Assembly (NCBI GenBank): GCA_963971535.1
Contig: OZ020587.1
Location: forward strand, 160,407,856 to 160,471,855
Direction: 5' to 3'
From: Notolepis coatsorum
Taxonomy: Eukaryota > Chordata > Actinopteri > Aulopiformes > Paralepididae
Length of the DNA stretch: 64,000 nt
Shown here: piece by piece, positions 3,165 to 49,090 of the stretch
Position numbering within the stretch: position 1 is the first letter of the stretch
How the letters are laid out: every line of letters begins with the position of its first letter
Notes under the pieces: generated by a model
Databases searched by the model: none
The model's input: the letters and a program-made list of their open reading frames with translations, nothing else
What the model was told of the DNA's origin: nothing
Program-made: the position numbers and the translations under genes

Positions 3165-4033
3165 CATACACTATGATGTAATAAGTACCTCCTTCATGAC
3201 TATCAGCTCCTATGATGTAATAAGTACCTCGCTCATGACCGTATCAGCTCCTATGATGTAATAAGTACCTCGTTCATGATCGTATCAGCTGCTATGATGT
3301 AATGAAGTACCTGTTCATGAGGCTGCTATGATGTAATAAGTACCTCGTTCATGACCGTATCAGCTCCTATGATGTAATAAGTACCTCGTTCATGACCGTA
3401 TCAGCTCCTATGATGTCATAAGTACCTCGTTCATGACCGTATCAGCTCCTATGATGTAATAAGTACCTCGCTCATGACCGTATCAGCTCCTATGATGTAA
3501 TAAGTACCTCGTTCATGATCGTATCAGCTGCTATGATGTAATGAAGTACCTGTTCATGAGGCTGCTATGATGTAATAAGTACCTCGTTCATGACCGTATC
3601 AGCTCCTATGATGTAATAAGTACCTCGTTCATGACCGTATCAGCTCCTATGATGTCATAAGTACCTCGTTCATGACCGTATCAGCTGCTATGATGTAATA
3701 AGTACCTCGTTCGTGACCGTATCAGCTGCTATGATGTAATAAGTACCTCGTTCATGATCGTATCAGCTGCTATGATGTAATAAGTACCTCGTTCATGACC
3801 GTATCAGCTCCTATGATGTAATAAGTACCTCGTTCATGACCGTATCAGCTCCTATGATGTAATAAGTACCTCGTTCATGACCGTATCAGCTCCTATGATG
3901 TAATAAGTACCTCGTTCATGACCGTATCAGCTCCTATGATGTAATAAGTACCTCGTTCATGACCGTATCAGCTCCTATGATGTAATAAGTACCTCGTTCA
4001 TGACCGTATCAGCTCCTATGATGTAATAAGTAC
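3165..4033 (-). repeat. 41-bp minisatellite built from exon 4 end plus 5' splice site
   Basis: About 21 tandem 41-bp units (for example starts at 3811, 3852, 3893, 3934, 3975, 4016). On the minus strand each unit is the last 33 nt of gorasp2 exon 4 (11 codons, [11 protein letters not shown]) followed by the first 8 nt of intron 4 (GTACTTAT). The authentic exon 4 is the last unit, abutting the array at 4034. Each unit therefore carries a copy of the donor GAG/GTACTT. Two units are shortened to 34 bp with donor CAG/GTACTT (around 3300-3330 and 3540-3570); they are 239 bp apart, marking a 239-bp block (five 41-bp units plus one 34-bp unit) that was duplicated as a whole. Confidence 0.95.
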
Positions 4034-4120
4034 CTCGTTCATGACCGTATCAGCTCCTATGATGTAGTCCGTGTGAGGTCTCAGACCGGCGAGGGCTGCA
4101 GGTGAGTTTGGCTCTACTTC
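4034..4120 (-). CDS. gorasp2: gorasp2-like exon 4 (87 nt)
   Basis: Acceptor TTTGTCTCCAG at 4121-4131 (minus strand); the exon encodes [19 protein letters not shown] followed by [10 protein letters not shown], the beginning of the second PDZ-like repeat, 29 codons, phase 0 at both ends. The donor GAG/GTACTTAT is the first of about 22 identical or near-identical donors because the exon end is repeated in the adjoining array. Reading past the authentic donor meets an in-frame TAG after five codons (GTA CTT ATT ACA TCA TAG), so use of any distal donor would truncate the protein. Confidence 0.9.
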
Positions 4121-7100
4121 CTGGAGACAAACCACAGGGACATGACGTACGACATGGCAGGCTGCGGCATCACAGTGTCTTCATAGCTAATGGCTATGAG
4201 TCACGTTGGTCAAACGTTCAAACGGTTATTTTTCGTCATGGGAACAAGAGGAAAGATGCCTCTTTATAGATCTACAACGGAATCGAGATGCAGGGTTTTC
4301 CCTTGACGTCCAGAGAGGTTTGATTGACTGATTGATTGATTGATTTGATTGATTGATTGATTGAAAATTGTATGAACAGATTGCAGAATGGGTACAATAC
4401 AGTATGGCTCAATTCACACAATTGTTAAGAGGATGCAGACCAGAGAAAGACTTTCGTCTTGTTTACATCAGGGTCCCCCATTTTCAATTCATCATAAAGG
4501 AGACCATTATCCCACTGAGGTGGGTTTTGCATGATCATTAGGGATTCTAGTCTCTCTAGAAATACACGAAGACCTTTAGGAATACATAAGGCAATTGGAA
4601 TTACATTTAGCAACCCCAAATAATGGACAGGTTCCCTGGCTTACGCGACTATGCCGATTAAAACCATTCTGCCACTTGGCTGAGTATTCTGATAAGGCAG
4701 CTAATGCAGAGAGAGAATTGTGATTGGCTAGTGATCAGTGACTGTGTGTACAGGGGCGTCAGTGGCTCAGGAGGCAGAGCAGTCGTCTGGTAATCCGGAG
4801 GTTCCCAGTTCGATTCCCGGGCAGCGTGTCGAAGTGTCCTTGAGCAAGACACTTAAGACACCGATGAGCAGGCTGGCACCGGTCGGTGTGTGAATGTGTG
4901 AGTGAATGGGTAGAATGTGAGGAACAAATTGTAAAGCGCTTTGGATAAAAGCTGTTATATAAATTTGTATGTGTAGCAGCTAGGAGGGATATGAGGACTG
5001 TGTGTATGTGTAACTATGAGAGATATGAGGACAGTGTGTATGTGTAACTAGGAGGGATATGAGGACAGTGTGTATGTGTAACTAGGAGGGATATGAGGAC
5101 TGTGTGTAATGTGTAACTAGGAGGGATATGAGGACAGTGTGTATGTGTAACTAGGAGGGATATGAGGACTGTGTGTAATGTGTAACTAGGAGGGATATGA
5201 GGACTGTGTGTAATGTGTAACTAGGAGGGATATGAGGACTGTGTGTGTGTGTAACTAGGAGGGATATGAGGACTGTGTGTATGTGTAACTAGGAGGGATA
5301 TGAGGAATGTGTGTAACTAGGAGGGATATGAGGACAGTGTGTATGTGTAACTAGGAGGGATATGAGGACTGTGTGTATGTGTAACTAGGAGGGATATGAG
5401 GACTGTGTGTGTGTAACTAGGAGGGATATGAGGACTGTGTGTAACTAGGAGGGATATGAGGACTGTGTATGTGTAACTAGGAGGGATGTGAGGACTGTGT
5501 GTATGTGTAACTAGGAGGGATATGAGGACTGCGTGTATGTGTAACTAGGGGGGATATGAGGACTGTGTGTAACTAACTAGGAGGGACATGAGGACTGTGT
5601 GTATGTGTAACTAGGAGGGATATGAGGACTGTGTGTAATGTGTAACTAGGAGGGATATGAGGACTGTGTGTATGTGTAACTAGGAGGGATATGAGGACTG
5701 TGTGTATGTGTAACTAGGAGGGATATGAGGACTGTGTGTGTGTAACTAGGAGGGATGTGAGGACTGTGTGTGTGTAACTAGGAGGGATATGAGGACTGTG
5801 TGTATGTAACTAGGAGGGATGTGAGGACTGTGTGTATGTGTAACTAGGAGGGATATGAGGACTGTGTGTATGTAACTAGGAGGGATGTGAGGACTGTGTG
5901 TATGTGTAACTAGGAGGGATGTGAGGACTGTGTGTATGTGTAACTAGGAGGGATATGAGGACTGCATGCATGTGTAACTAGGGGGGATATGAGGACTGTG
6001 TCTATGTGTAACTAGGAGGGATATGAGGACTGTGTGTATGTGTAACTAGGAGGGATATGAGGACTGTGTGTATGTGTAACGAGGAGGGATGAGGACTGTG
6101 TATGTGTAACTAAGAGGGATATGAGGACTGTGTGTAATGTGTAACTAGGGGGATATGAGGACTGTGTGTATGTGTAACTAGGAGGGATATGAGGACTGTG
6201 TGTAATGTGTAACTAGGGGGGATATGAGGACTGTGTGTAATGTGTAACTAGGGGGGATATGAGGACTGCGACTGCGTGTATGTGTAACTAGGATGGATAT
6301 GAGGACTGTATGTGTAACTAGGAGGGATATGAGGACTGTATGTGTAACTAGGAGGGATATGAGGACCACTTTGACAAACTAGGATGGCTTAGAGTAGACA
6401 ACAGAGTACAGCAACTTGCAATGGGCCTGGTCTACAAGATACACTACACGACCAAGGTACCCATGTTGTACATGTCAAAATACTTCCCAAAGGTCAGTGA
6501 ATACCACAATCACAACACCAGAGGGAGCTCCACAAATCATGTTAAACCCAGATTCGGCTCAAACAAGGGACTAAACACGTTTCACAATTATGCCACATCA
6601 ATGTGGAACGCCCTACCCAAAGCTGTAAAGGAATGTGAATCACTACCCACTTTCAAAACCACTCTCAAAGAACACCTACGGGAGACTGCAATTCGAAACT
6701 GGCCCCTGTAAATGTCCTAACCCAACCCCCTCCAATGTACAGTAAATGCATCATGGTGGTGTAGTGGTTAACACTGTCGCCTCACAGCAAGAAGGTCCAG
6801 GGTTCGATTCCCACTTGGGGACCAGGTTTCCATGATGCCAGGTACTCAGGTGGGGTATCTCCCAGGCCTTTCTGTGTGGAGTTTGCATGTTCTCCCCGTG
6901 CTCGTAAGGGTTTCCCCCCGATAAGATAAACCCAATGGAAAAACATGCACAACAGATCGCTAACGCTGTGGCGTCCTTGACGAAGACGGACAGGAGCACT
7001 TGGATTGGTCCCCGGGGCGCGGCTCACGTTGACGCCCTATCTGCTCCCGGCTGCCCATGGGGGGAAGGACAACGGGATGGGAAAAGTGCAGAGACATTTC

Positions 7101-10100
7101 ATCGGCGACTCAGTGCATGTGTGTGTGTGTTCCTGTGGGTCGCCCATCTCGCGTGTGTGTGTTGAAACTGCATGACAAATAAAGACTTCTAGTCTAACAA
7201 TTATTATTATTATGACCAAGTATGGTTGTCAATATTCCAATGTACAGTTTTGCTTGTACAGTTGTACAGTGTCCCCCCCCCCCCCCCACCTACGCAACCT
7301 CCTCCAATGTACAGTTTCTACATCAAATGTATATACTCTCTTTTCTGGACTCTTTTTGTATCACAAACAGTACTGTATTTGCAAATCTGGTATGTCATAA
7401 ATGTATAGATGTAGCAGTACTGTCTATCTGTATGTCGTGTATCTGTCATATATGAATATGATGAATTGAAAATGGGGGACCCTGATGTAAACAAGACGAA
7501 AGTCTTCTCTGGTCTGCATCCCCTTAACAATTGTATGTATTGAGCCGTACTGTATTGTACCCATTCTGCAATCTGTTAAATAAAGTTTTCTTTTTTATCT
7601 ACTTTTTCTCCCGTTTTATATTTTTTTCTCCCATCCCAATTTCGTATTGTCCAATTCTCCCCTCCCCTGTCTCGAACTCTGTTAGGCCATGCCTCCCACA
7701 AGCCGGCTGCAATGTGAACCAAGCCTTGCATCACGTGTCCCCTCCGGTACACGAGGAGGCAGCTGTCGCATCTTTTCACCTGCACAGCGCGATCTCTCAG
7801 CTGCGAGGGTCTGCGTGGGAGGGACACGCCGCCCCCGTTGCTTCCTGATTCTACTGCGCAGGCGCACCAACCGACCTGTAGGAGTCGCTGTCCACAACGT
7901 CCGATCCCCACCTACCAGCTTCCCACCCCTAACACTGCCAATTGCGTTAGTATGAACGACCAGCCAAGCTGGTAGCAATGCTGAGACCTGGGCTCGAACC
8001 CAGCATCTCCTGCGTTCGTGGCGAGCGCCTTGCCCACTGCGCCACTTAGCCGCCCTGTTAATAAAGTTTTCAATCAATCAATCAATCATGTGTAGCTAGG
8101 AGGGATACCGCCGCACTACCAAAATGGTTAACCCCTTTCACCGCGACAATACACAGAACAAGGTTAACCCTTTCACTGCCACACGACAGCCACCGTCGGT
8201 TGTATAATAGTAAAGGGTTAACCTTCTGTCGCGTGGCAGTGAAAGGGTTAACAATTGTGTGTATTGTACTGTGTACTGTACCCATTCTGCAATCTGTTAA
8301 TAAAACATTTTTCAATCAATCTATCAATTTTCAATCAATCAATCAATCGATCAGACAGCCCTGTTGTCCACTCACCAGGATGTGCCAGACGTTCTCGTTG
8401 GCTCCCTGGAAGCTGCAGAAGCGGATGCTGACCCCCAGGAGCCCCGGTCCTCCTCCCCACATGTTGCTGGGCGTCACGCTGGTGTCCCGCAGCTCCAGCG
8501 TCTTGCTGCTGTAGACCAGCATCCGCACGGGCTTCTCCACGTTCACCTTCAGCAGGTCCTTCAGAGTGTCGTTGTCTTTGTTCTATAGCAGACGCGGGTG
8601 GCAATTGTTACAATTGGGTAGGGCTGACCTCTATTAGTCGATTAGTCCAGTGGTTCCCAAAGTCGGGGTCGCGACCCAAAGGTGGGCCGCGAGCAGCCAC
8701 GGGAGGGCCGCGAGATGATTTCCAAATCACCAAATCACTGAAATTAGAAGCAGGCCAAGACAGTGTTTCTAGTTGTATTCTAAAATTCTATTCTATTGTA
8801 TTCTAAAATGTGACTATATGGTTTTATATTAACTTAATAAATAAACAAAAACTAAAAATCTAATTATTTCAACGAACATTTCAAACTAAATAACAGATTA
8901 TGCACATAAAACGCTGAAAACAACCGAAGCAACAATAGTATTTTAATGAGGCTATTATTATTATCATTATTATTTTGCAACAAGTTAGCCCTTTCATAAA
9001 TAGCACATATAAATGAATAACTGGCTTGAACTAACTTAATAGGATTGAAGTGATATTTGGCTTAAAAAATCGGTCGCCTGGCAAAAAAATAAATAAAAAA
9101 AGCCTGACGATGTGCATTGGGCCGCGGCTCTCTGACGCCTTATTTTCTGGGTCCCGGCCTGAAAAGTTTGGGAACCCCTGGATTAGTCGACTAATCGGTC
9201 GAAAGGAGCCGTAGTCGACTGCCAACCTCTTAGTCGAATACAAAAAAAAATAAGAAATGATTATAATATATATATATATTTTTGTATCATTCTTTCCAAA
9301 AGAAAAGAGGCCTAGAAGCATCATGGCTAACACTAATGGCACGCATACCAGAGGCTAACTGCCTACGAAAACAGGCACAGAGGCACTGAAAGAGGATTTC
9401 ACCCATCTAATGAACACACTAGACTAGACAAATATCAAGATGTATCCATCAGTGGACCAATTGCATGCTTTCGCAGAGGACAAGAAGCCTTCAGTCGACT
9501 CCTTCAGACATTAAGCACCCCCACAGCCCAAATGGAATGATACCAAAAAAAAAATTATATTAAAATTATTTTTAATTTTTTTAGTTAGTCGACTAACGGC
9601 AAATTTTGGCCAATCATAGTCGACCATCCAAATCCTTAGTTGGGCACAGCCCTACAATTGGGGATGTCCGATATTATCGGCCGATATTGGCATTCAAATG
9701 TAATATCGGAAATTACCGGTTTTCAAATTTTTATTTATATATATATATTTTTTAACATTTATTTAAACTTTATTTACCCAGGCGAGCAAGTAAGAACAAA
9801 TTCTTATTTTATTTATTGTCAAAAGTATGCATAATGTTGTGTTAATTCCACGACAAGAGATATGTAATGTTAATTACCTGAAATTATTCAGAAACCCCAC
9901 ATATATATCGGTATCGGTTGATATCGGTATCGGAAATTAAGAGTTGGACAATATCGGTATATCGGTAAAAAGAAAAGCCAATATCGAACATCCCTAGTTA
10001 CAATGAGTGTGATCACAGGCACAGGACACACACGCGCATTGTTTAGATTAGATTACATTCAAATGTATTGTCATCATGCAGCACAAGTACAGTACAACGA

Positions 10101-13100: not shown

Positions 13101-15330
13101 TGGGGGGGAAACGGCAATCGATAATCTATATAATGCGTTTGGGCCTATAACTAGCGTTTTTGGAATTACAGCAGAAAAGATTAAAAACATACTTATATTC
13201 TAGAAGGTATTATTAACACAACAATGTATGAATGAAAAAGTATAACGTTCCCACATCCTGAACGATAGATGTTGAATGGGCCATAGTAATGTCAATATAG
13301 CAATAAAATTAAAAAGTTATAGCCCTGCAAAGAAGGTAAACATCTCCATAGGCTTACAGCGCTGGCAGAGAGGGGCATAAAATGGGCATAACCCCCGGCG
13401 GGCAATGTGTTAATCTAATATACAGTAGGAGCTGGTGCGTCTGCCTTACATTGCAGGGAACTTGTTGGCGAATGACCGAAATAAAGCTTTGGTCTCTGTT
13501 TAACCTCATGTTTGAAAGGATAGTGTAAAAGATTATGTTGCATAAAGGTTTAACAGACTTAAGTATGCCATTATAATTCAGGATATTAAAGTATTATACT
13601 ATTATTTGTCACATTTATATTTGTTGTGTAAATGATTTAATTTGAATTAAAATGTCTTGGACATACAAGTATCCAGGACACTTATCCCATTAACTATTGT
13701 TTTGTTGTGACATGAATAAGATAAGTTTCCATACTATTCATAATACACTTATTTATCCATGTGGATATTAAGTGATAGGAATACAAAGATGTATATTTAA
13801 CGTCTTATCCGAAATGAGACATTACTACCCATGATAGGAGCCATCATCTGGAATACTACGCGCACTAATTGTCAAGCTGATATTACTTTTGGTTCTTGAA
13901 GATTTTATCAGAGCCACTGGAAGTTTAATTTCGGATCATTTTGAACTCACCAATCTGGTGTCACAGATGGAAATGATGAAATCGAAGAACGGCTCCAGAC
14001 CGGCACGATGACCGGGAGAGTTCTCCTGCACCTGCAGGTGAGACCACCACACAGTCAATAGCAGTGATTGATTGATTGATTGATTGATTGAAAATGTTAT
14101 TAACAGATTGTAGAATGGGTACAATACAGTACGGCTCAATACACACTTTCGTCTTGTTTACATCAGGGTCCCCCATTTTCAATTCATAATAACATATGAC
14201 ATACATGACATACAGGTAGACAGTACTGTTGCAACTTGTGACTCATCTCTTCACATTGTATTACTTTGACCAGACCGGTTGTTCTGGTATCATCACCACA
14301 AGCCTGTGTCACAGGCACATGGCAGCGGTGGCCTAATGGTTAGAGAAGTGGGTTTGTGACCGGAAGGTCGCCGGTTCGATACCCGGGACTGGCAGGAAAA
14401 ATCTGCTGCTGAAGTGCCCTTGAGCAAGGCACTTAACCCCCAACTGCTCCAGTGGAGTTGCTCAGTGGCCAACGGTGTCAGACTGTGGTTGTACTGGGCA
14501 GCTCCCAGGTGTGAATGGAACTGTGTGAATGTGAAGCAGGGTGTAGCTGAAAAAGAGCATCTGTGCTCAGCGAACCTACCCTGGGTAAATAAAGGTTAAA
14601 CAAACAAACAGTTCAATCGACAAAAATAGTCTGAAAAAGAGAGTATATACATTTGAGGGGGAAGACGGAGCGGTGGGCTTCAAAATAAAAGTTTTGGGAA
14701 ATAAATTTCTCAAAGAAATTCTCTAACCGGTCGCAATAATATCGCTTATCGCGATATTTTCGGGGGCAATTAATCGCCCAGCAAAATGTGTTATCGAGGC
14801 AGGCCTAGATAAGATAATGCAATGCACAAACAGTACTGTATTTGTAGATCTGGTATGTCATAAATGTATAGATGTAGCAGTACTGTATGTCATATGTATG
14901 TCATAATTATGTCCTGATGAATTGAAAATGGGGGACCCTGATGTAAACAAGACGAAAGTCTTTCTCTGGTCTGCATCCCCTTAACAATTGTGTGTATTGA
15001 GCCGTACTGTATTGTACCCATTCTGCAATCTGTTAAATAAAGTTTCAATCAATCAATCAATGTTTGCTGTGACTCGATTTAAAGAGAGCCCCAGCAGTTT
15101 GCTAGCAAACTAGCCAGCTTGCTAACAGTAAAGCTAACACATTTACAGCACCTTCCCCCCCCCCTATGCAGACACACTACAGACCATAATATCAACAGCA
15201 GCACATGCACGACTCTGTGACATGATGCTGCAGCGATACATCATGACGTGATGAACATGTTTCATACTCGCAGGACGTGGTATCCCTCGGATCCGCCACC
15301 GGGCATCTCGACACTCTGAGCTCCCCCCAT
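4034..15330 (-). CDS. gorasp2: Golgi reassembly-stacking protein 2-like gene, first four coding exons
   Basis: CDS is join of 15330-15268, 14031-13951, 8582-8376 and 4120-4034 on the minus strand: 21+27+69+29 = 146 codons, all junctions phase 0 with GT/AG signals. The product starts [13 protein letters not shown], so Gly2 is available for N-myristoylation as in GRASP proteins, and continues with the first PDZ-like repeat ([54 protein letters not shown]) and the start of the second ([16 protein letters not shown]). GRASP55 tethers Golgi cisternae and acts in unconventional secretion (family knowledge). Sequence resembles GRASP55/GORASP2 more than GRASP65. The loop after SNMW reads GGGPG, apparently one residue longer than I expect for the family. 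The second PDZ repeat's remainder and the Pro/Ser-rich tail lie beyond the left edge. Introns are packed with young transposons. Confidence 0.9.
4321..4500 (-). repeat. LINE family A 3' tail, reverse copy, in intron 3
   Basis: Starts with a (GATT)n run at 4321-4365 and continues with the reverse complement of the common LINE tail (CAGATTGCAGAATGGGTACA, then CATCAGGGTCCCCCATTTTC). A 5'-truncated copy of the LINE at 62003-63918. The following 4501-4751 holds nothing I recognise. Confidence 0.85.
4752..4970 (+). mobile_element. tRNA-derived SINE with L2-type tail
   Basis: A tRNA-like head has A box TGGCTCAGGAGG and B box GTTCGATTCCC. It is followed by the block GTCCTTGAGCAAGACACTTA, which resembles the conserved central part of V-SINE-type fish SINEs, and a 3' end AAAGCGCTTTGGATAAAAGC typical of L2-mobilised SINEs. 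The tRNA-like part is promoter sequence of the SINE, not a tRNA gene. Same family as the minus-strand copy at 49425-49663. Confidence 0.8.
4971..6365. repeat. 34-bp minisatellite in gorasp2 intron 3
   Basis: About 40 units of roughly 34 bp with core AACTAGGAGGGATATGAGGA (for example starts 5046 and 5080) and a GT-rich spacer of variable length. Read in the direction of gorasp2 each unit contains TCCTCATATCCCTCCTAG, a pyrimidine run ending in AG that resembles a 3' splice site. The array ends abruptly at a LINE; one orphan unit (CTAGGAGGGATA) lies on the far side of the LINE at about 8095-8107. Confidence 0.95.
6749..7213 (+). mobile_element. tRNA-derived SINE nested in the LINE
   Basis: Starts with a tRNA-like head (A box TAGTGGTTAACAC, B box GGTTCGATTCCC) and the block GTGTGGAGTTTGCATGTTCT common in fish SINEs. 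It ends ACAAATAAAGACTTCT with a (TTA)n tail. Inserted between GTACAGTAAATG and ACCAAGTATGG of the LINE, which are contiguous at 63455-63475. Spurious ORFs here carry no family signature. Confidence 0.8.
7590..8055 (-). mobile_element. tRNA-derived SINE nested in the LINE, reverse, with TSD
   Basis: On the minus strand the head reads AAGTGGCGCAGTGGGCAAGG with B box GGTTCGAGCCC and the element ends in a pyrimidine/purine-rich tail. The LINE tail segment TGTTAAATAAAGTTTT (7574-7589) is repeated as TGTTAATAAAGTTTT (8056-8070) on the other side: a target duplication of about 15 bp, as expected for LINE-mediated insertion. Confidence 0.85.
8163..8252. repeat. Palindromic MITE-like hairpin (TTAACCC type), copy 1
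   Basis: Arms 8163-8189 and 8226-8252 are complementary with one mismatch (GTTAACCCTTTCACTGCC and its complement). A second copy of the same hairpin lies at 33084-33151. No ORF. Confidence 0.75.
8253..8350 (+). repeat. LINE family A 3' tail
   Basis: ACAATTGTGTGTATTG through CCATTCTGCAATCTGTTA and an (ATCA)n tail ending about 8350, only 26 bp from the exon 3 donor of gorasp2. Confidence 0.85.
8376..8582 (-). CDS. gorasp2: gorasp2-like exon 3 (207 nt)
   Basis: Acceptor TCTGCTATAG at 8583-8592 (minus) and donor CTG/GTGAGT at 8375. 69 codons, phase 0 at both ends, beginning [11 protein letters not shown] and ending ANENVWHIL, the larger part of the first PDZ-like repeat of GRASP55. Confidence 0.92.
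8619..9654. mobile_element. Middle nested hAT element
   Basis: Ends TAGGGCTG and CAGCCCTA, interior rich in TTAGTCGACTAA-type motifs; perfect 8-bp duplication CAATTGGG at 8611-8618 and 9655-9662. The left copy of the duplication straddles the boundary of the outer element, which proves this insertion came later. Non-coding. Confidence 0.9.
8648..9180. mobile_element. Innermost nested hAT element
   Basis: Ends CAGTGGTTCCCAAAG and GTTTGGGAACCCCTG (Charlie/Zaphod-type hAT termini), 533 bp, perfect 8-bp duplication GATTAGTC at 8640-8647 and 9181-9188. Non-coding. Confidence 0.92.
10043..10520 (-). repeat. LINE 3'-UTR-type dispersed repeat, family not assigned
   Basis: ATTCAAATGTATTGTCATCA and AAGTACAGTACAACGAAAAG are typical of reverse-oriented fish LINE 3' ends. 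Pieces of it recur at 61905-62003 and, in opposite orientation, at about 1840-1915. It appears to continue to the right of the hAT at 10529-11169, so the hAT is nested in it. Confidence 0.5.
10529..11169. mobile_element. Non-autonomous hAT, 641 bp
   Basis: Ends TAGAGCTGGGC and GCCCACCTCTA, perfect 8-bp duplication GTATATAT at 10521-10528 and 11170-11177. Internal positions 10637-10735 match, in reverse, the middle of the SINE at 14320-14605, so the element captured or was hit by a SINE. A TTAATCTAGATT-type tract precedes the right end. Confidence 0.9.
11523..12092. mobile_element. Non-autonomous hAT, 570 bp (CAGGGGTGTAAAG type)
   Basis: Ends CAGGGGTGTAAAGTA and TACTTTTTACACCCCTG; perfect 8-bp duplication GTCCTGAC at 11515-11522 and 12093-12100. 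Short ORFs inside have no recognisable domain. Confidence 0.93.
12161..13413. mobile_element. Possible piggyBac-like non-autonomous element
   Basis: TTAA at both ends (12161-12164, 13410-13413) followed by imperfect inverted termini CACATCCAGCGCC and GGCGGGCAATGTG (about 9 of 13 matching). Interior non-coding, interrupted by a LINE tail at 12735-13023. TTAA duplication is characteristic of piggyBac, but the termini are weak evidence on their own. Confidence 0.45.
12735..13023 (+). repeat. LINE family A 3' tail, (ATTC)n type
   Basis: From the C-rich 3' UTR and TCATATGTATATACTCTGTC through GAATTGAAAATGGGGGACCC to AAATAAAGTGTTCATTCATTC. Ends in CATT repeats rather than the CAAT repeats of most copies here. 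Confidence 0.9.
13414..13950. other. Intron 2 of gorasp2, no feature recognised
   Basis: AT-rich intronic sequence leading to the exon 2 donor at 13950. No ORF, repeat family or conserved motif seen. Confidence 0.5.
13951..14031 (-). CDS. gorasp2: gorasp2-like exon 2 (81 nt)
   Basis: Acceptor CTCACCTGCAG at 14032-14042 (minus), donor TTG/GTGAGT at 13950. 27 codons, phase 0, beginning [16 protein letters not shown] and ending CDTRL; the GLEPFFDFI stretch is the carboxylate-binding-loop region of the first GRASP PDZ repeat. Confidence 0.92.
14066..14215 (-). repeat. LINE family A 3' tail, reverse
   Basis: (GATT)n at 14067-14090, then the reverse LINE tail to about 14215; an internal stretch between ACACA and CTTTCGTCTT is missing relative to other copies. 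Lies in gorasp2 intron 1. Confidence 0.85.
14320..14605 (+). mobile_element. tRNA-derived SINE in gorasp2 intron 1
   Basis: Head GTGGCCTAATGGTTAGAG (A box) and GGTTCGATACCCGG (B box), then GCCCTTGAGCAAGGCACTTA (V-SINE-like central block) and an end GGGTAAATAAAGGTTAAA. Its middle part also occurs in reverse inside the hAT at 10529-11169. Confidence 0.8.
14815..15062 (+). repeat. LINE family A 3' tail
   Basis: Runs from AAACAGTACTGTATTTG through ATGGGGGACCCTGATG to AAATAAAGTTTCAATCAATC. Intron 1 of gorasp2. Confidence 0.88.
15268..15330 (-). CDS. gorasp2: gorasp2-like exon 1, coding part (63 nt)
   Basis: ATG at 15330-15328 is followed by [20 protein letters not shown], the conserved myristoylated N-terminus of GRASP55; donor CGA/GTATGA at 15267. 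This start is chosen because Gly2 and the motif match the family, although the frame is open a further 43 codons upstream. Confidence 0.9.
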
Positions 15331-33652: not shown

Positions 33653-35042
33653 TGTTGTGAAGGATCAGATTAAACCGAATATATATATTTATTATATATA
33701 TATATTTAAATAGTATTTGTATATCGTTTGATATCCCCTGTATATTCCTTGTACAATATGCACTGAATATCCCTTTAGTCTACTAAACAGCCCATAATAG
33801 TTTCATTCTACCATTGGACGAGAACCTGGCGCCAGCAGCCATACCCCTAGGTTCAAGTTCAATCGTGCCGCCCAACATGTCGTGGCAAGCCCGGTTCCGC
33901 GTAGGAATACGTCTGGCGAAATACGAATGGTACTATTTGTTCACAGCGCATATATATATGGCGCAAGTAAAGTAGAACTTTCTTTTAGTCCATTAGTTCT
34001 TTACCCTCCAACCGAGTAACAGACGCGAAGCCTCACCCACGACGCACGTGTGGTGCAGTAAGGCCTACTTGGCCTCAGAATAGGCATTGAGATATCGTGT
34101 GGATTAATAGTTGAATTGTCATAGTTTGGCACTATACCGTCGAGTTGGACGTATTCTATTAAGCTAATAATAGTCTATTTATGTATGGTGCATCGTTCGG
34201 TTAGAGTTATAAAGTTATCAGTACCCCCATCGTTCCTGACGTTATCTGGAGTCTTAACCAGGCTGGGCAGACCACTAGTGGTGCTTGCATCCGAGGAGCT
34301 CCGGGCCAGGGCGACTGGACCTGTACATTGGATTACTCTACCCGGACGACGGCGAGCCTTCCACGGCTTGGATTATGCTTTGGGTGCTTTGATTATTCCA
34401 TGGATAACGGCCAACACTTCTGAGTGTTGGAACTACCCCCCGGAGAGGAGTCAAGGTGAGACGGTGCTCTACACCAGTGAGGTCGCCTCACGTCTCTCCG
34501 TTGTGGACCGGCAGCTACCGTCCACCAGAGGGTCCAGCTGTATTCGTCTGCGGACCGAGGTTCTGTGGGCACCGTGTTCAAGACTTTGAATTCTCCCAAG
34601 AAATCGTCGGCCAGATGGGATACCGCCAGCGGCTTCTCTAACCCCCCCCTCCTACTGTCTTACAACCAGCGGGACCCCCCCCCCCTTAGTGTATCCAGCT
34701 ATAATCATTTAAGTACCATCGCTATAGTTTCCTAAAGAACCGGGTTGTATACTTACTCCCTGCGTAACCAGAGATTGGACATTCAATGTTGATTTACCTA
34801 CGAATACTCATTTGCCATACAAGTGCATTTCAAATCATAAGTGTAAACAAGTGAACGTTGTATATACCTTTTGCTATATTAAATATTCGATTTGTACATT
34901 TGTGTGGACTTCGTTTCATCAGGTGGGAAAGTGTTCATCATATTTATATCATGTACTGGATGGCCAGAAGTTAAAGTACAAGAGGTAGTGGTTTAATACC
35001 ATACTTAACAATACAGTCAGGGAATTGTACCCCTCAGTTACA
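33653..35042 (+). repeat. BEL 5' LTR, 1390 bp
   Basis: TGTTGTGAAGGATC to CCTCAGTTACA. The 134-codon frame at 34185-34589 has no known domain and is simply duplicated in the 3' LTR. Confidence 0.95.
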
Positions 35043-35062: not shown

Positions 35063-35110
35063 GGTAACTAGTGTAATATTAATATAGTGTTATTAATATT
35101 AAAATGGCCT

Positions 35111-38100
35111 ATGATGAACACTCCACGAAACGGTCCTCCTAACGTAGAACGCCCGCGGCGCAGACGACAGACACCTCAGTACTTAGAGGATTACGCTGTC
35201 AGTCAACTACCTAGCCTTCGACAAACGGTAAACGCGGTAAAAGTAGAAAGTAAAATTATGTCTGACCTTAACGACCAGGTGTCCCCGACCACAAAGGCCC
35301 TAGTAGGTCCTAATGTAACTGACCAAGCTCACGGTGGGGACCAGGAGGGAGCTGACATGCCTTTACCCCCCGCCAATACCGAAGAAGTAGTCCCCGACCA
35401 GCCCCGGGAGGAAGACAACCCTACAGAGAGAGAACTCTGCACGGAAGAAGAGGAGGAGAGCGCCGAGGAAATAGAGCTCCAGGACTCCCCAACGAGTACA
35501 CCCAGGAGCGGCTCACCCAGGAGCGGCTCACCTCCACAACCGCCTTCCCCCAGCGAAGCGGAGAGGATGCTACAACAGGCGTTCCTCGTCAGCCTGACAG
35601 CCTCTACCGAACGCGATCGACTTCAGGGTGAACGCGATCGTCTCCAAGCACAGACGCTTAGCGAGCGCGAACAACTCCAAGCGCAACAACGGAGCGAAGA
35701 AGAGCGCATACGCCTGGAGATGAGACGCCTTCAGACGGAAGAGAATATGGCAAGAGACCGGGCCGACGCCCAGCGCGCCGCTGCCGGTGCCCAAAGAGAA
35801 GCAGATCTCACCAAGCGCGAAGTCGAGCGCGACAAGTTACAAGCGCAGCTAATGGAGCAGCTGATCCGCAAGGCAACACCCTCTCCCTCCGCCAGGGGTT
35901 CAAGGAACTCGTCGAGACAACAGTCAAGGGCAGCGTCTCCTAACCGAGCAAGCGACCCTGAACTTGACCAACAGACCGAGCCTATACCCCCCGCAGACCC
36001 CCTTCCCAGACCGGTCCAAGCGAGACCCAGCTACAAGGAAGGAGCGGCATACACTGCGGAGAAGCTAAATAAACGATTACAGGATCTGGAAGACCTGATA
36101 GAGGAAGAAGAGGGAGAGGAGGAGAACCAAGCCCGACGACAGCACAGTACTCCACCGGACCAGGAGGTCCAGTACAGCCCAGGCTATACCCCCGCGGCGC
36201 TGCGCTACAGACCCCCGACTCTATTCACGGGTGAGCACGACGCACGACCAGCCCCGAGGAATAGCACCTGGACCAGCGGGCCATGGTACCCTGTCGGTAC
36301 CAGCCCACAGAGAGGCGCAAGAGGGGACTCGCCTAGGAGGTCTCTCCCCCAACGCTCGCCGATGTATCAGCCATCCACGGCGTCATACATTGCCACGCCG
36401 TCGTTTCCAGACTTCACCTATGAGAGTCGAGCACAGTACACGGAGCTCCGGATGTGCTTAGAGACAATGATGGTGGATGTCGCTGATGAACGCCACAAGT
36501 ATGCAATATTACTGAAGCACCTGAAAGTACCGCGAGCGCACAATATAGCGCTGGCCTATGCCACCTCTACGACCCCATACACAGCGGCCCTGGCGGCGCT
36601 GGACCAGAGATATGGACGTATATGGGATTACGTAATCCAAGAGATAAGGCATATTGATCGCCTACCCCCAGCAACAGACAATCGCTCATTAGACGACCTG
36701 TCAATCAAAGTGCAGTCCCTGGTAGGGATGCTGGGAGCGCAACGGGAAAAGGGCATGCATGAGCTATACGCCAACTCTAACGTCGAGAGGATTTTGGAGA
36801 AGCTGCCACCCGCAAGACAAGAGCGTTTTAGGCGGCAGAGAGACTACCGGGATCCCAACGGCCCCGAACCATCCCTCCTTGATCTAGCCGACTTCCTGGC
36901 GAGAGAAGTCAGCAGCTTACGACTGGATACGTTCGGGCGGAGCACGCCAAGCTCCAGAGAGGGACCCAGGAGAATAAATGATGGAAGAAGATCGGTGACT
37001 GTCATGCACCAATCAGAGTCAGTACCGAGCAGTAAGAGCCACAGTACCCCCTCGAGAAAAGAGAAGTGGAAGATGGTTTGCCCCTACTGTGAGAAAGAAC
37101 ACTGGCTGTCACAATGTGACCTGTTCACAAAGATGAATGCAGAAGAAGTGAGTCAATGGATAAAGTCCAACAGGCGCTGTTACCGATGTGCGCGACCACA
37201 CATGGCAGCCGAATGCCGCCTAAAGAAAAGGTGCAGTCGGTGCGACGGAGCCCATCTAGATATACTACACGACAGTAACAGAAGACGGCCTTCACCTGCA
37301 CCATCGAGCGGCACCAAGGCAAGTGTCATGTACATTGACCCCGCCAGCAGCAGCGGCGCCCAAGTGCTCTTAAAGGTAGTCCGTGTGACATTGAGCTACC
37401 AAGATAAAGTCATGGACACTTACGCCGTCCTTGATGACGGGTCAGAGAAGACCCTTCTGCTCGCGTCCGCTGCGGCCCAGCTGGGACTGCGGGGGAGCGA
37501 GAACGAAATGACGATTCGGACAATAAGAAGAGATTTAAAGACGATAAAGGGCGAGAATGTCTCCTTCACTATCGCAGCAAACGGGCAGCCAGAGCGACGG
37601 TATAGGATTACAAATGCTTTCACCAGCCAAGAAATAGGACTATCGCAGTACACCTACCCTATCGCCAAGTTGATGGATAAATATGTGCACCTGCGACAAC
37701 TACCCATCCCGCTCATAGACGGCGCTACCCCGACCCTGCTGATAGGCTCCGACCATGCAGAACTCATAGTCCCGATTGACCGGGTCCATACAGGACCCCG
37801 AGGCTGTCCTGCGGCAGTCGAGACCCGCCTAGGGTGGACACTACAAGGCCCCCTCGCTAAATCTCTCAACCGAACAGCAGCCACTAGCTGCCTCCACTCC
37901 AGAACGACAGAAGAAGACACCACTCTCCTGCAACATGTCGAGAGGCTATGGACACTAGAGACAATGCCCTTTAAGAACGAAAAGAAAGATATTCGTTCTA
38001 AAGAAGACATTTACGCCATCAACCTACTCGAGCAAGGGACAAAGAGAGTCACAGTCGGCGGAGTGATGAGATACGCAACTCCACTCCTGAGGCGAGAGGG

Positions 38101-41100
38101 AATGCCCACTTTTCACGCAAAGAAAGACGCCACGGAGCGCTATCTATTGAACATGGAGCGGCGCCTAGCCAAAGACCCCGCTCAAGAGAGTGTGTACCGC
38201 GCTGAGATTGAGAAGCTAATCACAGCGGGACACGTGACAAAGATTGACATTAAAGAGGCCGATCAGACGACCGAATCATGGTACGTGCCGCATCACAAGG
38301 TCCACCACAACGGCAAGGATCGCATTGTGTTTAACTGCAGCTACCAGATCGGATCCCAAAATCTGAATAAAGAGCTCTTGCCCGGCCCCACACTCGGCCC
38401 CTCCCTACTAGGCGTGCTACTGCGCTTCCGCCAGGACAAGGTGGCTATCAGCGGGGATATCAAAGGGATGTTCCTGCAGGTGAGACTAGTGGAGGAGGAC
38501 AAGCCCCTGCTGCGGTTCCTATGGAGAGAGAGGATCGGAGATGAGAACCCAGCCATCTACCAGTGGGAAGTACTCCCCTTCGGAACCACATGCAGCCCGT
38601 GCTGTGCTACATTTGCACTACAGAAACACGTCGCAGAGGACCCAGCAGCAGATGAAGAGGTCCGACACAGTGTGAAGAACAGTTTCTACGTGGACAACTG
38701 TTTACAAAGCGTTTCGACTCAAGAAGAAGCCGAGGCTCTCCTAATCAAGCTACGCGCCTCCCTGATCAAAGGCGGCTTTGATCTCAGGCAGTGGGCCAGC
38801 AGTGACCCGCACGTATTGCGCAGCCTCTCCCCCGCGGACAAGGCTGCCAGCAGCGAGACCTGGATGGCGACCATCCCAGGAGAAGCCCAAGAAATGACAC
38901 TAGGACTAGTCTGGCGCTTCAAAACAGACTCGCTCCACTATAGACCAGAGCAGGGAAGGTCGACGGCGATACCGACCACCAGACGGAGTGTGTACAGAAC
39001 ACTCGCCAGACAATATGACCCGTTGGGATGTATTCTACCTTACACCACCAGGGCAAAGATGATTGTACGAGCACTATGGGACAAGGACCAGGGCTGGGAC
39101 GACCCCATACCCGCACACCTTGCCTCAACATGGAGAGAGTGGGAGACGGAACTCCGCTCACTCCCAGGCGTCAATATACGCCGCAGCTACTTCCCATCCA
39201 CAGTGAGGCCAGAGACATGCAAGATTGATCTACACGTCTTCAGCGACGCCTCTGAAGTAGCCTATGGATCGGTGGCCTACTTGCGTGCCCAAGAGAAGGG
39301 AGGAAAGATACACACTGCTTTCATCCTGGCTCGCTCAAGAATAGCCCCACAAAAGCAACAATCTATCCCGCGTCTAGAGCTCTGCGCAGCCCTAGCAGGA
39401 GCGCATCTAGCCACGTTAATCCAACATGAACTCACCATTCCGGTGCACAGAACAATCTTGTGGTCAGATTCCACGACAGTACTCACATGGATCAAGTCTG
39501 ATTCATGCAGATACAAAGTCTTCGTGGGAGTCAGAGTCACCGAGATTCAAGAGTTAACAGAAGCAGCGAGCTGGCGGTATGTGGACACCAAACACAACCC
39601 AGCTGACGTCATCACCCGGGGAATGTCTCTGGATGACCTCACCCGTCGCAACATCTACAGTGACGGACCAGAATTCCTCAAGCTCCCCGAAGAAGAGTGG
39701 CCTACGCCCACCCCACGGGAAGCAAGTAACGAGGAGGCTGAGAACAAGAAACCTATGTTCTGTGGACTGAGCACAGTCGCCTCCACAGACCCCAACATAG
39801 ATGACTGCATTACCCTAGAGAGTGCGCAGCAAAAGACATTCCTGTGGCACCACCCAGAGATTCAGTCCACCACTGACATGTCAGCAGCTGACTACGAAGA
39901 AGCAGAACTTCTTCTACTACAACGAGCCCAGAGAGACTCGTTCCCCGATGAGCTAGACTGTCTACAGGGAGGAAAGCCCGTCCCATCAGACAGCAGACTG
40001 CTCCACCTGGCACCCGAGAGTGACGCCCATAATCTCATCAGAGTGGGTGGTCGCCTGCGGAGAGCCCCCGATCTACCGGATGACATTAAGTACCCGATAG
40101 TCTTGAACAGCAGACACAAGGTCACAGAGCTGATCATAAAGAAATACGACGAGGATGTACACCACGCAGGAGCAGAGAGAGTCTTCGCGGAGATCAGACG
40201 TCGCTATTGGATACTTCAAGGAAGAGAAGCGGTGCGACGCTTCCAGCGAACCTGTCTAGACTGCCGAAAGTGGCGCGCGCAGCCCAGCATACCACGGATG
40301 GCTGACATACCTCCCTGTCGCCTCCGACTCGGCGACAAGCCATTCCACTCCACAGGCATGGACTGTTTTGGCCCGTTGTATATAAAGAGAGGAAGAGGAA
40401 CCGAGAAGCGGTGGGGTATTGTATTCAAATGCATGACCACCAGAGCGATACATATCGAGCTCCTTCCGACCATGAGCACAGACTCATTCCTTATGGCCTT
40501 CCGAAGATTCACATCACGGAAAGGAAAACCGTCTACATTGTTGTCTGATCACGGGACAAACTTCAAAGGCGGAGAAAGAGAGCTGAGAGAGAGCTTCCAA
40601 GCTATGGGCCCAGAACTTAAGACCCACCTCGCTCCATCCCAGATTGACTTCCAGTTTAATCCCCCGAACGCACCCCAATTCGGTGGAACCTGGGAACGAG
40701 AAGTACGTTCTATAAAGACAGCCCTGTACGCCGTGCTTGGGGCCCAGACTGTGGCGGAGGAAGTCCTAATGACAGTCCTCACGGAGATCGAGGGAGTATT
40801 GAACTCAAAGCCCCTCGGTTACGTCTCCAGTGATGTAGCAGATGTCGACCCAGTCACCCCCAACACACTCTTAATGGGGCGGCTGGACCCCGCGCTACCC
40901 CAGACAATGTACAGGCCTGAAGAAGCGAACGGCCGAAGAATGTGGAGGTACAGTCAAGTACTAGCTGACAAGTTTTGGAGCAGCTTCCTACTCCACTACC
41001 TACCGTCTCTACAGACCCGCCAGAAGTGGGTAACAGAGAGAGACAATTTGACAGAAGGAACAGTCGTCATGATTATCGACCAGTCACTACCCAGAGCTAT

Positions 41101-41269
41101 GTGGCCGGCTGGCCGCGTAAGCAAAGTGATCACCGGTGCCGATGGCAAGGTCCGAGCAGCTGAAGTACTCGTCCAAGGGCGAACTTACACACGACCCGTG
41201 GCGAGGCTAATAGAACTGCCCCGACTCCCAGACACTATCGATGATGACCATGACCCCATGACTTTGTGA
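35111..41269 (+). CDS. BEL/Pao Gag-Pol polyprotein, intact, 2052 codons
   Basis: The first ATG of the frame is at 35111 (the frame is open from 35087 without an ATG). Gag: Glu/Arg/Gln-rich coiled coil (about 140-260), then a gag core (about 420-600; ALAALDQRYGRIWDYV), CCHC-like knuckles from C657 (CPYCEKEHWLSQC; CYRCARPHMAAEC; CSRCDGAH). Protease with DDG at 775-777 (VLDDGSEKTLLL), the Pao form of the D-[ST]-G site. RT with INNER motifs GDIKGMFLQVRL and active site FYVDN (Y1193-N1196). RNase H with D1379 (FSDASEVAYG), E of PRLELCAAL and D1453 (WSDSTTVLTW). Integrase zinc motif H1684/C1715/C1718 and catalytic D1751, D1813 (SDHGTNFKGG), E1862 (TWERE). A DUF5641-type C-terminus closes the protein (VARLIELPRL). 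No stop or frameshift. The second RT catalytic Asp is Asn here, as in some Pao elements. Confidence 0.95.
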   Translation: MMNTPRNGPPNVERPRRRRQTPQYLEDYAVSQLPSLRQTVNAVKVESKIMSDLNDQVSPTTKALVGPNVTDQAHGGDQEGADMPLPPANTEEVVPDQPREEDNPTERELCTEEEEESAEEIELQDSPTSTPRSGSPRSGSPPQPPSPSEAERMLQQAFLVSLTASTERDRLQGERDRLQAQTLSEREQLQAQQRSEEERIRLEMRRLQTEENMARDRADAQRAAAGAQREADLTKREVERDKLQAQLMEQLIRKATPSPSARGSRNSSRQQSRAASPNRASDPELDQQTEPIPPADPLPRPVQARPSYKEGAAYTAEKLNKRLQDLEDLIEEEEGEEENQARRQHSTPPDQEVQYSPGYTPAALRYRPPTLFTGEHDARPAPRNSTWTSGPWYPVGTSPQRGARGDSPRRSLPQRSPMYQPSTASYIATPSFPDFTYESRAQYTELRMCLETMMVDVADERHKYAILLKHLKVPRAHNIALAYATSTTPYTAALAALDQRYGRIWDYVIQEIRHIDRLPPATDNRSLDDLSIKVQSLVGMLGAQREKGMHELYANSNVERILEKLPPARQERFRRQRDYRDPNGPEPSLLDLADFLAREVSSLRLDTFGRSTPSSREGPRRINDGRRSVTVMHQSESVPSSKSHSTPSRKEKWKMVCPYCEKEHWLSQCDLFTKMNAEEVSQWIKSNRRCYRCARPHMAAECRLKKRCSRCDGAHLDILHDSNRRRPSPAPSSGTKASVMYIDPASSSGAQVLLKVVRVTLSYQDKVMDTYAVLDDGSEKTLLLASAAAQLGLRGSENEMTIRTIRRDLKTIKGENVSFTIAANGQPERRYRITNAFTSQEIGLSQYTYPIAKLMDKYVHLRQLPIPLIDGATPTLLIGSDHAELIVPIDRVHTGPRGCPAAVETRLGWTLQGPLAKSLNRTAATSCLHSRTTEEDTTLLQHVERLWTLETMPFKNEKKDIRSKEDIYAINLLEQGTKRVTVGGVMRYATPLLRREGMPTFHAKKDATERYLLNMERRLAKDPAQESVYRAEIEKLITAGHVTKIDIKEADQTTESWYVPHHKVHHNGKDRIVFNCSYQIGSQNLNKELLPGPTLGPSLLGVLLRFRQDKVAISGDIKGMFLQVRLVEEDKPLLRFLWRERIGDENPAIYQWEVLPFGTTCSPCCATFALQKHVAEDPAADEEVRHSVKNSFYVDNCLQSVSTQEEAEALLIKLRASLIKGGFDLRQWASSDPHVLRSLSPADKAASSETWMATIPGEAQEMTLGLVWRFKTDSLHYRPEQGRSTAIPTTRRSVYRTLARQYDPLGCILPYTTRAKMIVRALWDKDQGWDDPIPAHLASTWREWETELRSLPGVNIRRSYFPSTVRPETCKIDLHVFSDASEVAYGSVAYLRAQEKGGKIHTAFILARSRIAPQKQQSIPRLELCAALAGAHLATLIQHELTIPVHRTILWSDSTTVLTWIKSDSCRYKVFVGVRVTEIQELTEAASWRYVDTKHNPADVITRGMSLDDLTRRNIYSDGPEFLKLPEEEWPTPTPREASNEEAENKKPMFCGLSTVASTDPNIDDCITLESAQQKTFLWHHPEIQSTTDMSAADYEEAELLLLQRAQRDSFPDELDCLQGGKPVPSDSRLLHLAPESDAHNLIRVGGRLRRAPDLPDDIKYPIVLNSRHKVTELIIKKYDEDVHHAGAERVFAEIRRRYWILQGREAVRRFQRTCLDCRKWRAQPSIPRMADIPPCRLRLGDKPFHSTGMDCFGPLYIKRGRGTEKRWGIVFKCMTTRAIHIELLPTMSTDSFLMAFRRFTSRKGKPSTLLSDHGTNFKGGERELRESFQAMGPELKTHLAPSQIDFQFNPPNAPQFGGTWEREVRSIKTALYAVLGAQTVAEEVLMTVLTEIEGVLNSKPLGYVSSDVADVDPVTPNTLLMGRLDPALPQTMYRPEEANGRRMWRYSQVLADKFWSSFLLHYLPSLQTRQKWVTERDNLTEGTVVMIIDQSLPRAMWPAGRVSKVITGADGKVRAAEVLVQGRTYTRPVARLIELPRLPDTIDDDHDPMTL

Positions 41270-42754: not shown

Positions 42755-43660
42755 TAAAGAGTTATTAAACACTCTGGACTCAGTTCTCATGTCTTACAGT
42801 ATAAGAGTTATTAAACAATCTGGACTCACTTCTCAGATTGTCTTACAGTATACGAGTTATTAAACACTCTGGACTCACTTCTCAGATTGTCTTACAGTAT
42901 ACAAGTTATTAAACACTCTGGACTCACTTCTCAGATTGTCTTACAGTATAAGAGTTATTGAACACTCACTTCTCAGATTGTCTTACAGTAAGTTATTAAA
43001 CACTCACTTCTCAGATTGTCTTACAGTATCAGAGTTATTGAACACTCACTTCTCAGATTGTCTTACAGTATAAGAGTTATTAAACACTCACTTCTCAGAT
43101 TGTCTTACAGTATACGAGTTATTAAACACTCTGGACTCACTTCTCAGATTGTCTTACAGTATAAGAGTTATTGAACACTCTTCTCAGATTGTCTTACAGT
43201 ATAAGTTATTAAACACTCACTTCTCAGATTGTCTTACAGTATAAGAGTTATTAAACACTCACTTCTCAGATTGTCTTACAGTATAAGAGTTATTAAACAC
43301 TCACTTCTCAGATTGTCTTACAGTATAAGTTATTAAACACTCACTTCTCAGATTGTCTTACAGTATAAGAGTTATTGAACACTCACTTCTCAGATTGTCT
43401 TACAGTATGAGTTATTAAACACTCACTTCTCAGATTTTCTTACAGTATAAGAGTTATTAAACACTCACTTCTCAGATTGTCTTACAGTGAGTTATTAAAC
43501 ACTCACTTCTCAGATTGTCTTACAGTATAAAGAAGTTATTAAACTCTGGACTCCCTTCTCAGATTGTCTTACAGTATAAAGAGTTATTAAACACTCACTT
43601 CTCAGATTGTCTTACAGTATAAGAGTTATTAAACACTCACTTCTCAGATTGTCTTGTACA
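42755..43660 (+). repeat. 42/49-bp minisatellite, right part
   Basis: About 20 units: GAGTTATTAAACACTCACTT plus CTCAGATTGTCTTACAGTAT; some units carry a 7-bp insert TGGACTC. Units with and without the insert are interspersed, mostly with it near the BEL end. Confidence 0.95.
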
Positions 43661-48116: not shown

Positions 48117-49090
48117 AACAGGAAGTACAGAGAGGAGACAGACAGGAAGTACAGAGAGAGGAGACAGACAGGAAGTACAGAGAGAGGAGACAGACAGGAA
48201 GTACAGGGGGAGGAGACATACAGGAAGTACAGAGAGAGGAGACAGACAGGAAGTACAGGGGGAGGACAGACAGGAAGTACAGGGGGAGGAGACAGACAGG
48301 AAGTACAGAGAGGAGACAGACAGGATGTACAGGGGGAGGAGACAGACAGGAAGTACAGATAGGAGACAGACAGGAAGTACAGAGAGAGGAGACAGACAGG
48401 AAGTACAGATAGGAGACAGACAGGAAGTACAGAGAGAGGAGACAGACAGGAAGTACAGAGAGACAGACAGGAAGTACAGAGGGAGAGGAGACAGACAGGA
48501 AGTACAGAGAGAGGAGACAGACAGGAAGTACAGAGGAGACAGACAGGAAGTACAGAGAGAGAGGAGACAGACAGGAAGTACAGAGAGAGGAGACAGACAG
48601 GAAGTACAGAGAGAGGAGACAGACAGGAAGTACATAGAGAGGAGACAGACAGGAAGTACAGAGAGAGGAGACAGACAGGAAGTACAGAGAGGAGACAGAC
48701 AGGAAGTACAGAGAGACAGACAGGAAGTACAGAGAGGAGACAGACAGGAAGTACAGAGGGAGGAGACAGACAGGAAGTACAGATGGAGGAGACAGACAGG
48801 AAGTACAGAGAGAGGAGACAGACAGGAAGTACAGAGGGAGGAGACAGACAGGAAGTACAGAGGGAGGAGACAGATAGGAAGTACAGAGAGAGGAGACAGA
48901 CAGGAAGTACAGAGAGACAAACAGGAAGTACAGAGAGAGGAGACAGACAGGAAGTACAGAGGGAGGAGACAGACAGGAAGTACAGAGACAGGAAGTACAG
49001 AGAGAGGAGACAGACAGGAAGTACAGAGAGACAGACAGGAAGTACAGAGAGACAGCCAGGAAGTACAGAGGGAGGAGACAGACAGGAAGC
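48117..49090. repeat. 26-bp minisatellite (AGGAAGTACAGAGAGAGGAG)
   Basis: Nearly 40 units of 22-28 bp of the form GACAGACAGGAAGTACAGAG plus a purine spacer. Because 26 is not a multiple of 3 all frames stay open on both strands, producing long repetitive ORFs that are not genes. Confidence 0.97.

What the first reader, a model, noticed from the sequence alone, without database searches (positions are those of the whole stretch)
3165..4120. A minisatellite made of an exon end plus its 5' splice site, repeated ~21 times in gorasp2
Each 41-bp unit is the last 33 nt of exon 4 (11 codons) plus the first 8 nt of intron 4, so a coding exon now runs into an array of about 21 extra copies of its own donor site (GAG/GTACTT, twice CAG/GTACTT). 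Using the first donor gives the normal protein. Using any later one adds 41 nt per unit and meets an in-frame TAG five codons past the true junction (GTA CTT ATT ACA TCA TAG). The array is therefore a built-in series of decoy donors that could tune gorasp2 output through splicing and NMD, with strength depending on copy number. That repeats are exonic/intronic is directly visible; the regulatory effect is inference.
Basis: partly seen in the sequence, partly recalled or inferred. Interest (0 to 1): 0.92.

Follow-up and report, generated by a model that had tools for sequence, protein, structure and literature searches.

The report
Splice-donor minisatellites in both gorasp2 copies
The end of one coding exon of a fish Golgi gene, with its splice signal, has been copied in tandem 21 more times, and a second copy of the gene carries a similar array at the same place; the layout is already known from human clotting factor VII, where only the first signal is normally used.

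Summary
On the minus strand, exon 4 of gorasp2 (4120-4034) is followed by 21 further copies of its own donor: 22 GTACTT sites, each after AG; 16 of 21 units are 41 bp (33 exon nt + 8 intron nt), 9 of 21 are identical to the consensus, and the exon end matches the unit 33/33. All 21 later donors give the same in-frame TAG. The gene is intact where read: exons 1-8 were located, 1-6 in frame.

New here: a second, old gorasp2 paralogue on C7 (dS ~0.86 over 291 nt) also has a donor-spanning array at its exon-4 donor, with a different 30-bp unit and 17 extra donors, and the window gene's exon 6 donor starts a small third one. Against this, the genome is rich in minisatellites (27 arrays in 200 kb sampled), and AGGTAAGT arrays are barely commoner than a reversed-octamer control.

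The layout matches human F7 intron 7, where only the most upstream donor is normally used. I therefore think the decoys are mostly silent and the array largely neutral. The splicing/NMD 'tuner' is possible but unsupported; no RNA or population data were available. The recurrence in both paralogues is the unexplained part.

The parts
15268..15330 (-). gorasp2 exon 1 coding part, 63 nt, donor CGA|GTATGA
   Evidence: joins in frame
13951..14031 (-). gorasp2 exon 2, 81 nt, donor TTG|GTGAGT
8376..8582 (-). gorasp2 exon 3, 207 nt, donor CTG|GTGAGT
   Evidence: PDB GORASP2 151.6 bits
4034..4120 (-). gorasp2 exon 4, 87 nt; its last 33 nt (4066-4034) are the first copy of the repeat's exon part
4028..4033 (-). 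true exon-4 donor GTACTT (after GAG); weak, U1 duplex -5.7 kcal/mol
3171..4033 (-). minisatellite: 21 donor-to-donor units carrying 21 extra donors (first bases 3992 to 3188) and a partial last unit ending TACATCATAG
3201..3678 (-). two 239-bp blocks (3201-3439 and 3440-3678) 100% identical: multi-unit duplication inside the array
3788..4033 (-). six exon-proximal units, each identical to the consensus (exon-side homogeneity)
   Evidence: permutation p 0.0015 given 9 of 21 identical, ignoring the block duplication

Best explanation
A young, actively turning-over minisatellite formed by tandem duplication of the exon-4/intron-4 junction of gorasp2, perhaps through the 10-nt repeat TACATCATAG now found at both ends (inference). 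It works like human F7 intron 7: the spliceosome normally takes the most upstream donor, so the protein is normal and the 21 copies are removed with the intron. They are mostly silent, at most a backup if the first donor is weakened, with a low background of extended transcripts that meet the TAG and would be NMD targets. Its presence is tolerated rather than selected. Shown: anatomy, stop codons, gene structure, signs of turnover, array density. Inferred: which donor is used, and neutrality.
For: Anatomy. The exon-4 protein is conserved to human, so the exon is the source of the unit. Turnover: 239-bp block duplicated at 100%; six exon-proximal units identical. Genome rich in minisatellites: 27 arrays in 200 kb of random C8 sequence, so about 0.0055 expected per donor for a 41-nt unit, or 540-1107 donor-spanning arrays by chance if there are 200,000 donors (assumed). 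Tandem AGGTAAGT: 2683 matches vs 2503 for the pattern read backwards. [quoted passage not shown]
Against: The donor is weak (8.6% of 4071 minus-strand GT sites in the window are at least as strong), the CAG copies bind U1 better (-7.1) than the true one (-5.7), and nothing in sequence or local folding favours the first site. SRSF1 and other factors can favour intron-proximal donors (PMC5585400 passages). Both gorasp2 paralogues having such arrays is more than uniform placement predicts: 2 of 20 non-seed GRASP donors, expected 0.11, P 0.0057.
Confidence: 0.62

Rival explanations
1. One reading: decoy donors compete with the true donor, and extended transcripts end at TAG and are lost by NMD, so copy number sets gorasp2 output.
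For: 21 of 21 downstream donors give the same stop; exons 5-8 downstream place later junctions beyond it; donors equal in strength, the CAG ones stronger; in the C7 paralogue the five adjacent decoys also read into an in-frame TAG.
Against: F7 precedent, only the first donor used. A stop this close to a junction is common in introns (general knowledge), so the TAG is weak evidence. Donor invariance not significant. No RNA data.
Confidence: 0.12
2. The junction is a hotspot or is under selection: donor-spanning arrays formed (or an ancestral one kept turning over) at the exon-4 donor of both old gorasp2 paralogues for a shared, non-chance reason.
For: C7 array at the same donor with a different unit (13 exon + 17 intron nt) and 17 extra donors; small third array at the C8 exon 6 donor; none at the exon-4 donors of the two other GRASP genes; P 0.0057 for 2 of 20 non-seed donors. 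Array density around this gene (12 arrays in the window plus L009-L012, 104 kb) is no higher than in random C8 pieces (27 in 200 kb), so local clustering does not explain it.
Against: Small, partly post hoc sample; the null assumes uniform placement; the exon 6 array keeps AG|GT in only 2 of 6 extra copies; donor arrays hardly enriched genome-wide in the one pattern answered.
Confidence: 0.2
3. Nascent intron gain: duplicated AG|GT proto-splice sites let units be spliced out as introns of whole units or as recursive steps.
For: Every unit holds AG|GT, the feature of tandem-duplication intron gain described in PMC2891723 (passages).
Against: Upstream of AG the tract is poor: pyrimidines 0.44 at GAG|GTA and 0.56 at TAG|GAG versus 0.63-0.75 at three real acceptors of this gene; the array already lies in an intron.
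Confidence: 0.03
4. Assembly artefact.
For: Tandem repeats can be mis-assembled.
Against: Units vary in length and sequence, and the 8 unit hits scored in the genome lie in this one place (which scored one candidate place only). Read data not available.
Confidence: 0.03

Closest known systems
Human coagulation factor VII (F7) intron 7, 37-bp VNTR with repeated 5' splice sites
   Same: First repeat element holds the authentic donor; downstream copies are highly homologous; unit size similar (37 vs 41 bp). Seen in a passage of PMC6627357; further detail recalled from Borensztajn et al. 2006, which is not held.
   Different: 22 donors here (F7 copy numbers not looked up); weak donor (GTACTT); a Golgi gene of what I take to be a fish; present in two paralogues with different units; usage untested here.
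Intron gain by tandem duplication of an AGGT proto-splice site (Drosophila, PMC2891723; potato RdRp, PMC4974935)
   Same: Tandem duplication copies splice-site sequence.
   Different: Here an existing intron's donor is copied many times; no new intron is needed or likely. PMC2891723 seen as passages, PMC4974935 only in a search listing.
Competing 5' splice sites, DOK7 intron 4 (PMC5585400)
   Same: Two nearby donors, one giving a frameshifted product; SRSF1 affects the choice; minigenes with a duplicated donor were tested.
   Different: Two donors 11 nt apart, not a minisatellite. Passages seen.
Intronic minisatellites linked to splicing (C. elegans CeRep25B, PMC4039745)
   Same: A minisatellite enriched near alternative splicing regions.
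   Different: Unit there is a 24-base near-palindrome, not described as an exon end with its donor. Passages seen.

Membership tests
F7-type donor-spanning VNTR | First repeat element spans the exon-intron boundary | tested here: met
   Exon 4 last 33 nt equal the unit, 33/33
F7-type donor-spanning VNTR | Downstream copies carry the same donor | tested here: met
   22 of 22 GTACTT after AG
F7-type donor-spanning VNTR | Copy number varies between individuals | not testable with these tools
   One assembly only; the 239-bp duplicate block suggests recent change
F7-type donor-spanning VNTR | Only the most upstream donor is used | not testable with these tools
   No RNA data
Minisatellite | Head-to-tail units of about 10-100 bp with high identity | tested here: met
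   Period 41, 22.2 copies, 93% matches
Decoy donors feeding NMD | Every alternative donor leads to a premature stop upstream of later junctions | tested here: met
   21 of 21 reach TAG at codon 152; exons 5-8 lie downstream
Decoy donors feeding NMD | Decoys are used and output depends on copy number | not testable with these tools
   No RNA or genotype data
Intron gain by tandem duplication | Duplicated AG|GT with a usable acceptor | tested here: inconclusive
   AG|GT present; pyrimidine content below three real acceptors of this gene

The most novel reading that the evidence does not exclude
Splice donors of gorasp2 repeatedly seed, or keep, minisatellites made of their own junction: the exon-4 donor in both ancient paralogues and the exon-6 donor in one. 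The cause is shared and not chance, so exon-intron junctions can be birthplaces of minisatellites, or donor redundancy at this exon is favoured.
Probability: 0.25. Interest if true: 0.75.

Novelty: new member of a known kind. Interest (0 to 1): 0.48.

Why it matters
It is a natural test of how the spliceosome chooses among 22 near-identical, weak donors that differ chiefly in position, with a second, independent-looking array of stronger donors in the paralogue. It would show whether the first-donor rule described for human F7 holds in another vertebrate and with weak sites. If donor junctions seed minisatellites again and again, that adds a little-noticed source of repeat arrays inside genes.

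Tried and rejected
Chance repeat: rejected. Structure hiding the decoys: not supported; chance of an open 9-nt site 0.012 on average for decoys vs 0.005 for the true donor. Selection for donor sequence within the array: not supported (0.11). Arrays in general carrying donors: not supported; 7 of 27 random C8 arrays hold a GT site at least as strong as -5.7, against 0.25 of random stretches and 0.42 of shuffled units. Genome-wide donor-array enrichment: AGGTAAGT pattern 1044+1639 vs 1042+1461 for the reversed control; these are overlapping match windows led by a few large arrays, so a coarse test. The places listed were capped and all on contig C1, about eight arrays; for three of these I read upstream, and none looked like a coding exon, by eye only. 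A second pattern (AGGTGAGT) did not complete. Literature; none of these searches named gorasp2, so I make no claim that this locus is unreported. CTNS intron-7 VNTR (PMC5628181, passages) rejected as precedent: described as lying in intron 7, not at an exon boundary.

Full report
What is there. The window lies at C8:160407856-160471855 of an unnamed 3.42-Gb genome; I take it for a fish from its genes and repeats (inference). On the minus strand gorasp2 exons 1-4 join in frame to 146 codons. Exon 4 matches human GORASP2, and exon 3 scores 151.6 bits to GORASP2 against 117.7 to GORASP1. Exons 5 and 6 follow outside the window at L010 7184-7054 and 3066-2931 and continue the frame; exon 7 and exon 8 were located by similarity to recalled human probes. 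Later exons were not read. Intron 4 is about 16.8 kb.

The array. Between 4033 and 3171 there are 22 GTACTT donors: the true one and 21 more. Units: 16 of 41 bp, two each of 33 and 42, one of 39; 9 of 21 identical to the consensus. The six units next to the exon are identical (p 0.0015 under permutation, ignoring the block duplication), variation lies further out, and a 239-bp block is present twice at 100% identity. This is the picture of a minisatellite in turnover. The array ends with 10 nt, TACATCATAG, that also begin the exon part of the unit: either the short direct repeat that started it or a cut-off last unit (inference).

Consequences for RNA. Donor 1 gives the normal exon of 87 nt. 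Each of the other 21 gives the same stop at codon 152 after V-L-I-T-S. The donor is weak (-5.7 kcal/mol with U1, against -9.2 and -10.3 for exons 2 and 3, but -4.4 for exon 1); a CAG copy is somewhat stronger (-7.1). Local folding does not favour the true site. Position is the only mark of the first donor that I found.

The paralogue. A Pfam GRASP search gave 8 matches at four loci in the genome. The C7 gene is a second gorasp2 (163.8 vs 130.6 bits); the C29 and C30 genes are GRASP genes that this test hardly places (145.7 vs 142.7 bits, and 130.5 vs 128.8), and I call them gorasp1-like by exclusion. C7 and C8 differ by dS about 0.86 and dN 0.08 over 291 nt of exons 3 and 4, which I read as an old split. 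The C7 exon-4 donor GAG|GTATGT is also followed at once by a minisatellite of its own junction: TGTTATGAATGAG|GTATGTGTTGTGTAGCA, 30 bp, five extra donors, then an insert of about 525 bp whose ends look like inverted repeats of a DNA transposon (by eye), then 12 more donors of the same unit family: 17 extra donors. Unit length and phase differ from C8 (13+17 vs 33+8), so separate origins seem likelier than one inherited array; re-nucleation of an older array is not excluded. In C7 the near units mostly share the exon's AAT codon (4 of 5) and the far ones mostly have AAC (8 of 12), as expected if exon and near units are homogenised together. The C29 and C30 exon-4 donors have no array.

A third case. 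The C8 exon 6 donor GAG|GTACGG starts a 7-copy array of 18-20 bp units, in which 2 of 6 extra copies keep AG|GT.

How surprising. On 20 random 10-kb pieces of C8 I counted 27 minisatellites (period 10-100, at least 4 copies and 100 bp), 135 per Mb, some cut by the ends of the pieces. If arrays fall anywhere, about 0.27-0.55% of donors would be spanned, so one such donor is ordinary here. Of 20 other GRASP donors read (7 on C8, 5 on C7, 4 each on C29 and C30) 2 are spanned, expected 0.11, P 0.0057. Ways of looking differed: the C8 donors were tested for recurrence of the 20 nt around them (where the exon 8 site was set one base off), the others by TRF and by reading the donors. Array density in and near this gene, 12 in 104 kb, is not above the random sample, so local clustering is no excuse; but the sample is small, so I treat the recurrence as a lead. 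The one genome-wide pattern test that was answered showed almost no excess of donor-consensus arrays, 2683 vs 2503.

What it works like. [quoted passage not shown] when that first donor is mutated at +5, exon skipping and downstream cryptic donors appear. The original paper (Borensztajn et al. 2006) is not held. The anatomy is the same, so I file this as a new member of that kind on anatomy, with usage untested.

Verdict. Observation confirmed; mechanism most likely a tolerated donor-spanning minisatellite with mostly silent decoys; parallel arrays in both paralogues are the feature that deserves follow-up. On checking I withdrew a statement that arrays cluster in this gene (one search does not bear it out) and one on the make-up of intron 7; I left the odds as they were.

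Noticed in passing
L036 minus strand (C7:14640441-14643575), sense 187-364 and 890-1265: Second gorasp2 copy has its own donor-spanning array at exon 4: 30-bp unit, 5 + 12 extra donors, split by an insert of about 525 bp with transposon-like ends.
   Followed up: yes
L010:2802-2937: Small 18-20 bp array beginning at the exon 6 donor of the window's gorasp2; 2 of 6 extra copies keep AG|GT.
   Followed up: partly
window 4966-6366: A 34-bp, 42-copy minisatellite in intron 3, not touching an exon.
   Followed up: no
L011:521-939, 6137-6874, 7589-8220 and L012:9156-9904: Intron 7 of gorasp2 holds four arrays of a 21-bp based unit, about 2.5 of 9.2 kb, one ending about 20 nt before exon 8; many of the units printed contain CAGGTGATG, a donor-like motif.
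   Followed up: partly
L013-L032 (random C8 pieces): 27 minisatellite arrays in 200 kb, 9% of the bases, one 6.4-kb array being a third of that: a minisatellite-rich genome.
   Followed up: yes
window 35072-41269: An open reading frame of 2065 aa with retroelement-like sequence; near-identical 154-aa frames at 34125 and 41835 suggest flanking terminal repeats. Element type not tested.
   Followed up: no
window 42824-43655 and 48118-49089: Further minisatellites of 42 bp (19.5 copies) and 26 bp (38 copies), not in the gorasp2 exons or introns found.
   Followed up: no
window 8376-8582: Exon 3 of this gorasp2 copy has one extra codon ([10 protein letters not shown] vs LWGGQGLLG in C7) and scores lower to human GORASP2 than C7 does (151.6 vs 163.8 bits): it may be the faster-evolving copy.
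   Followed up: partly
L038, just after the exon-4 donor (near sense 1012): In the C30 GRASP gene a stretch like TATAATTTGTTTTTGTTGTTGGGG occurs twice shortly after the exon-4 donor (seen by eye); it does not span the donor and TRF did not report it.
   Followed up: no
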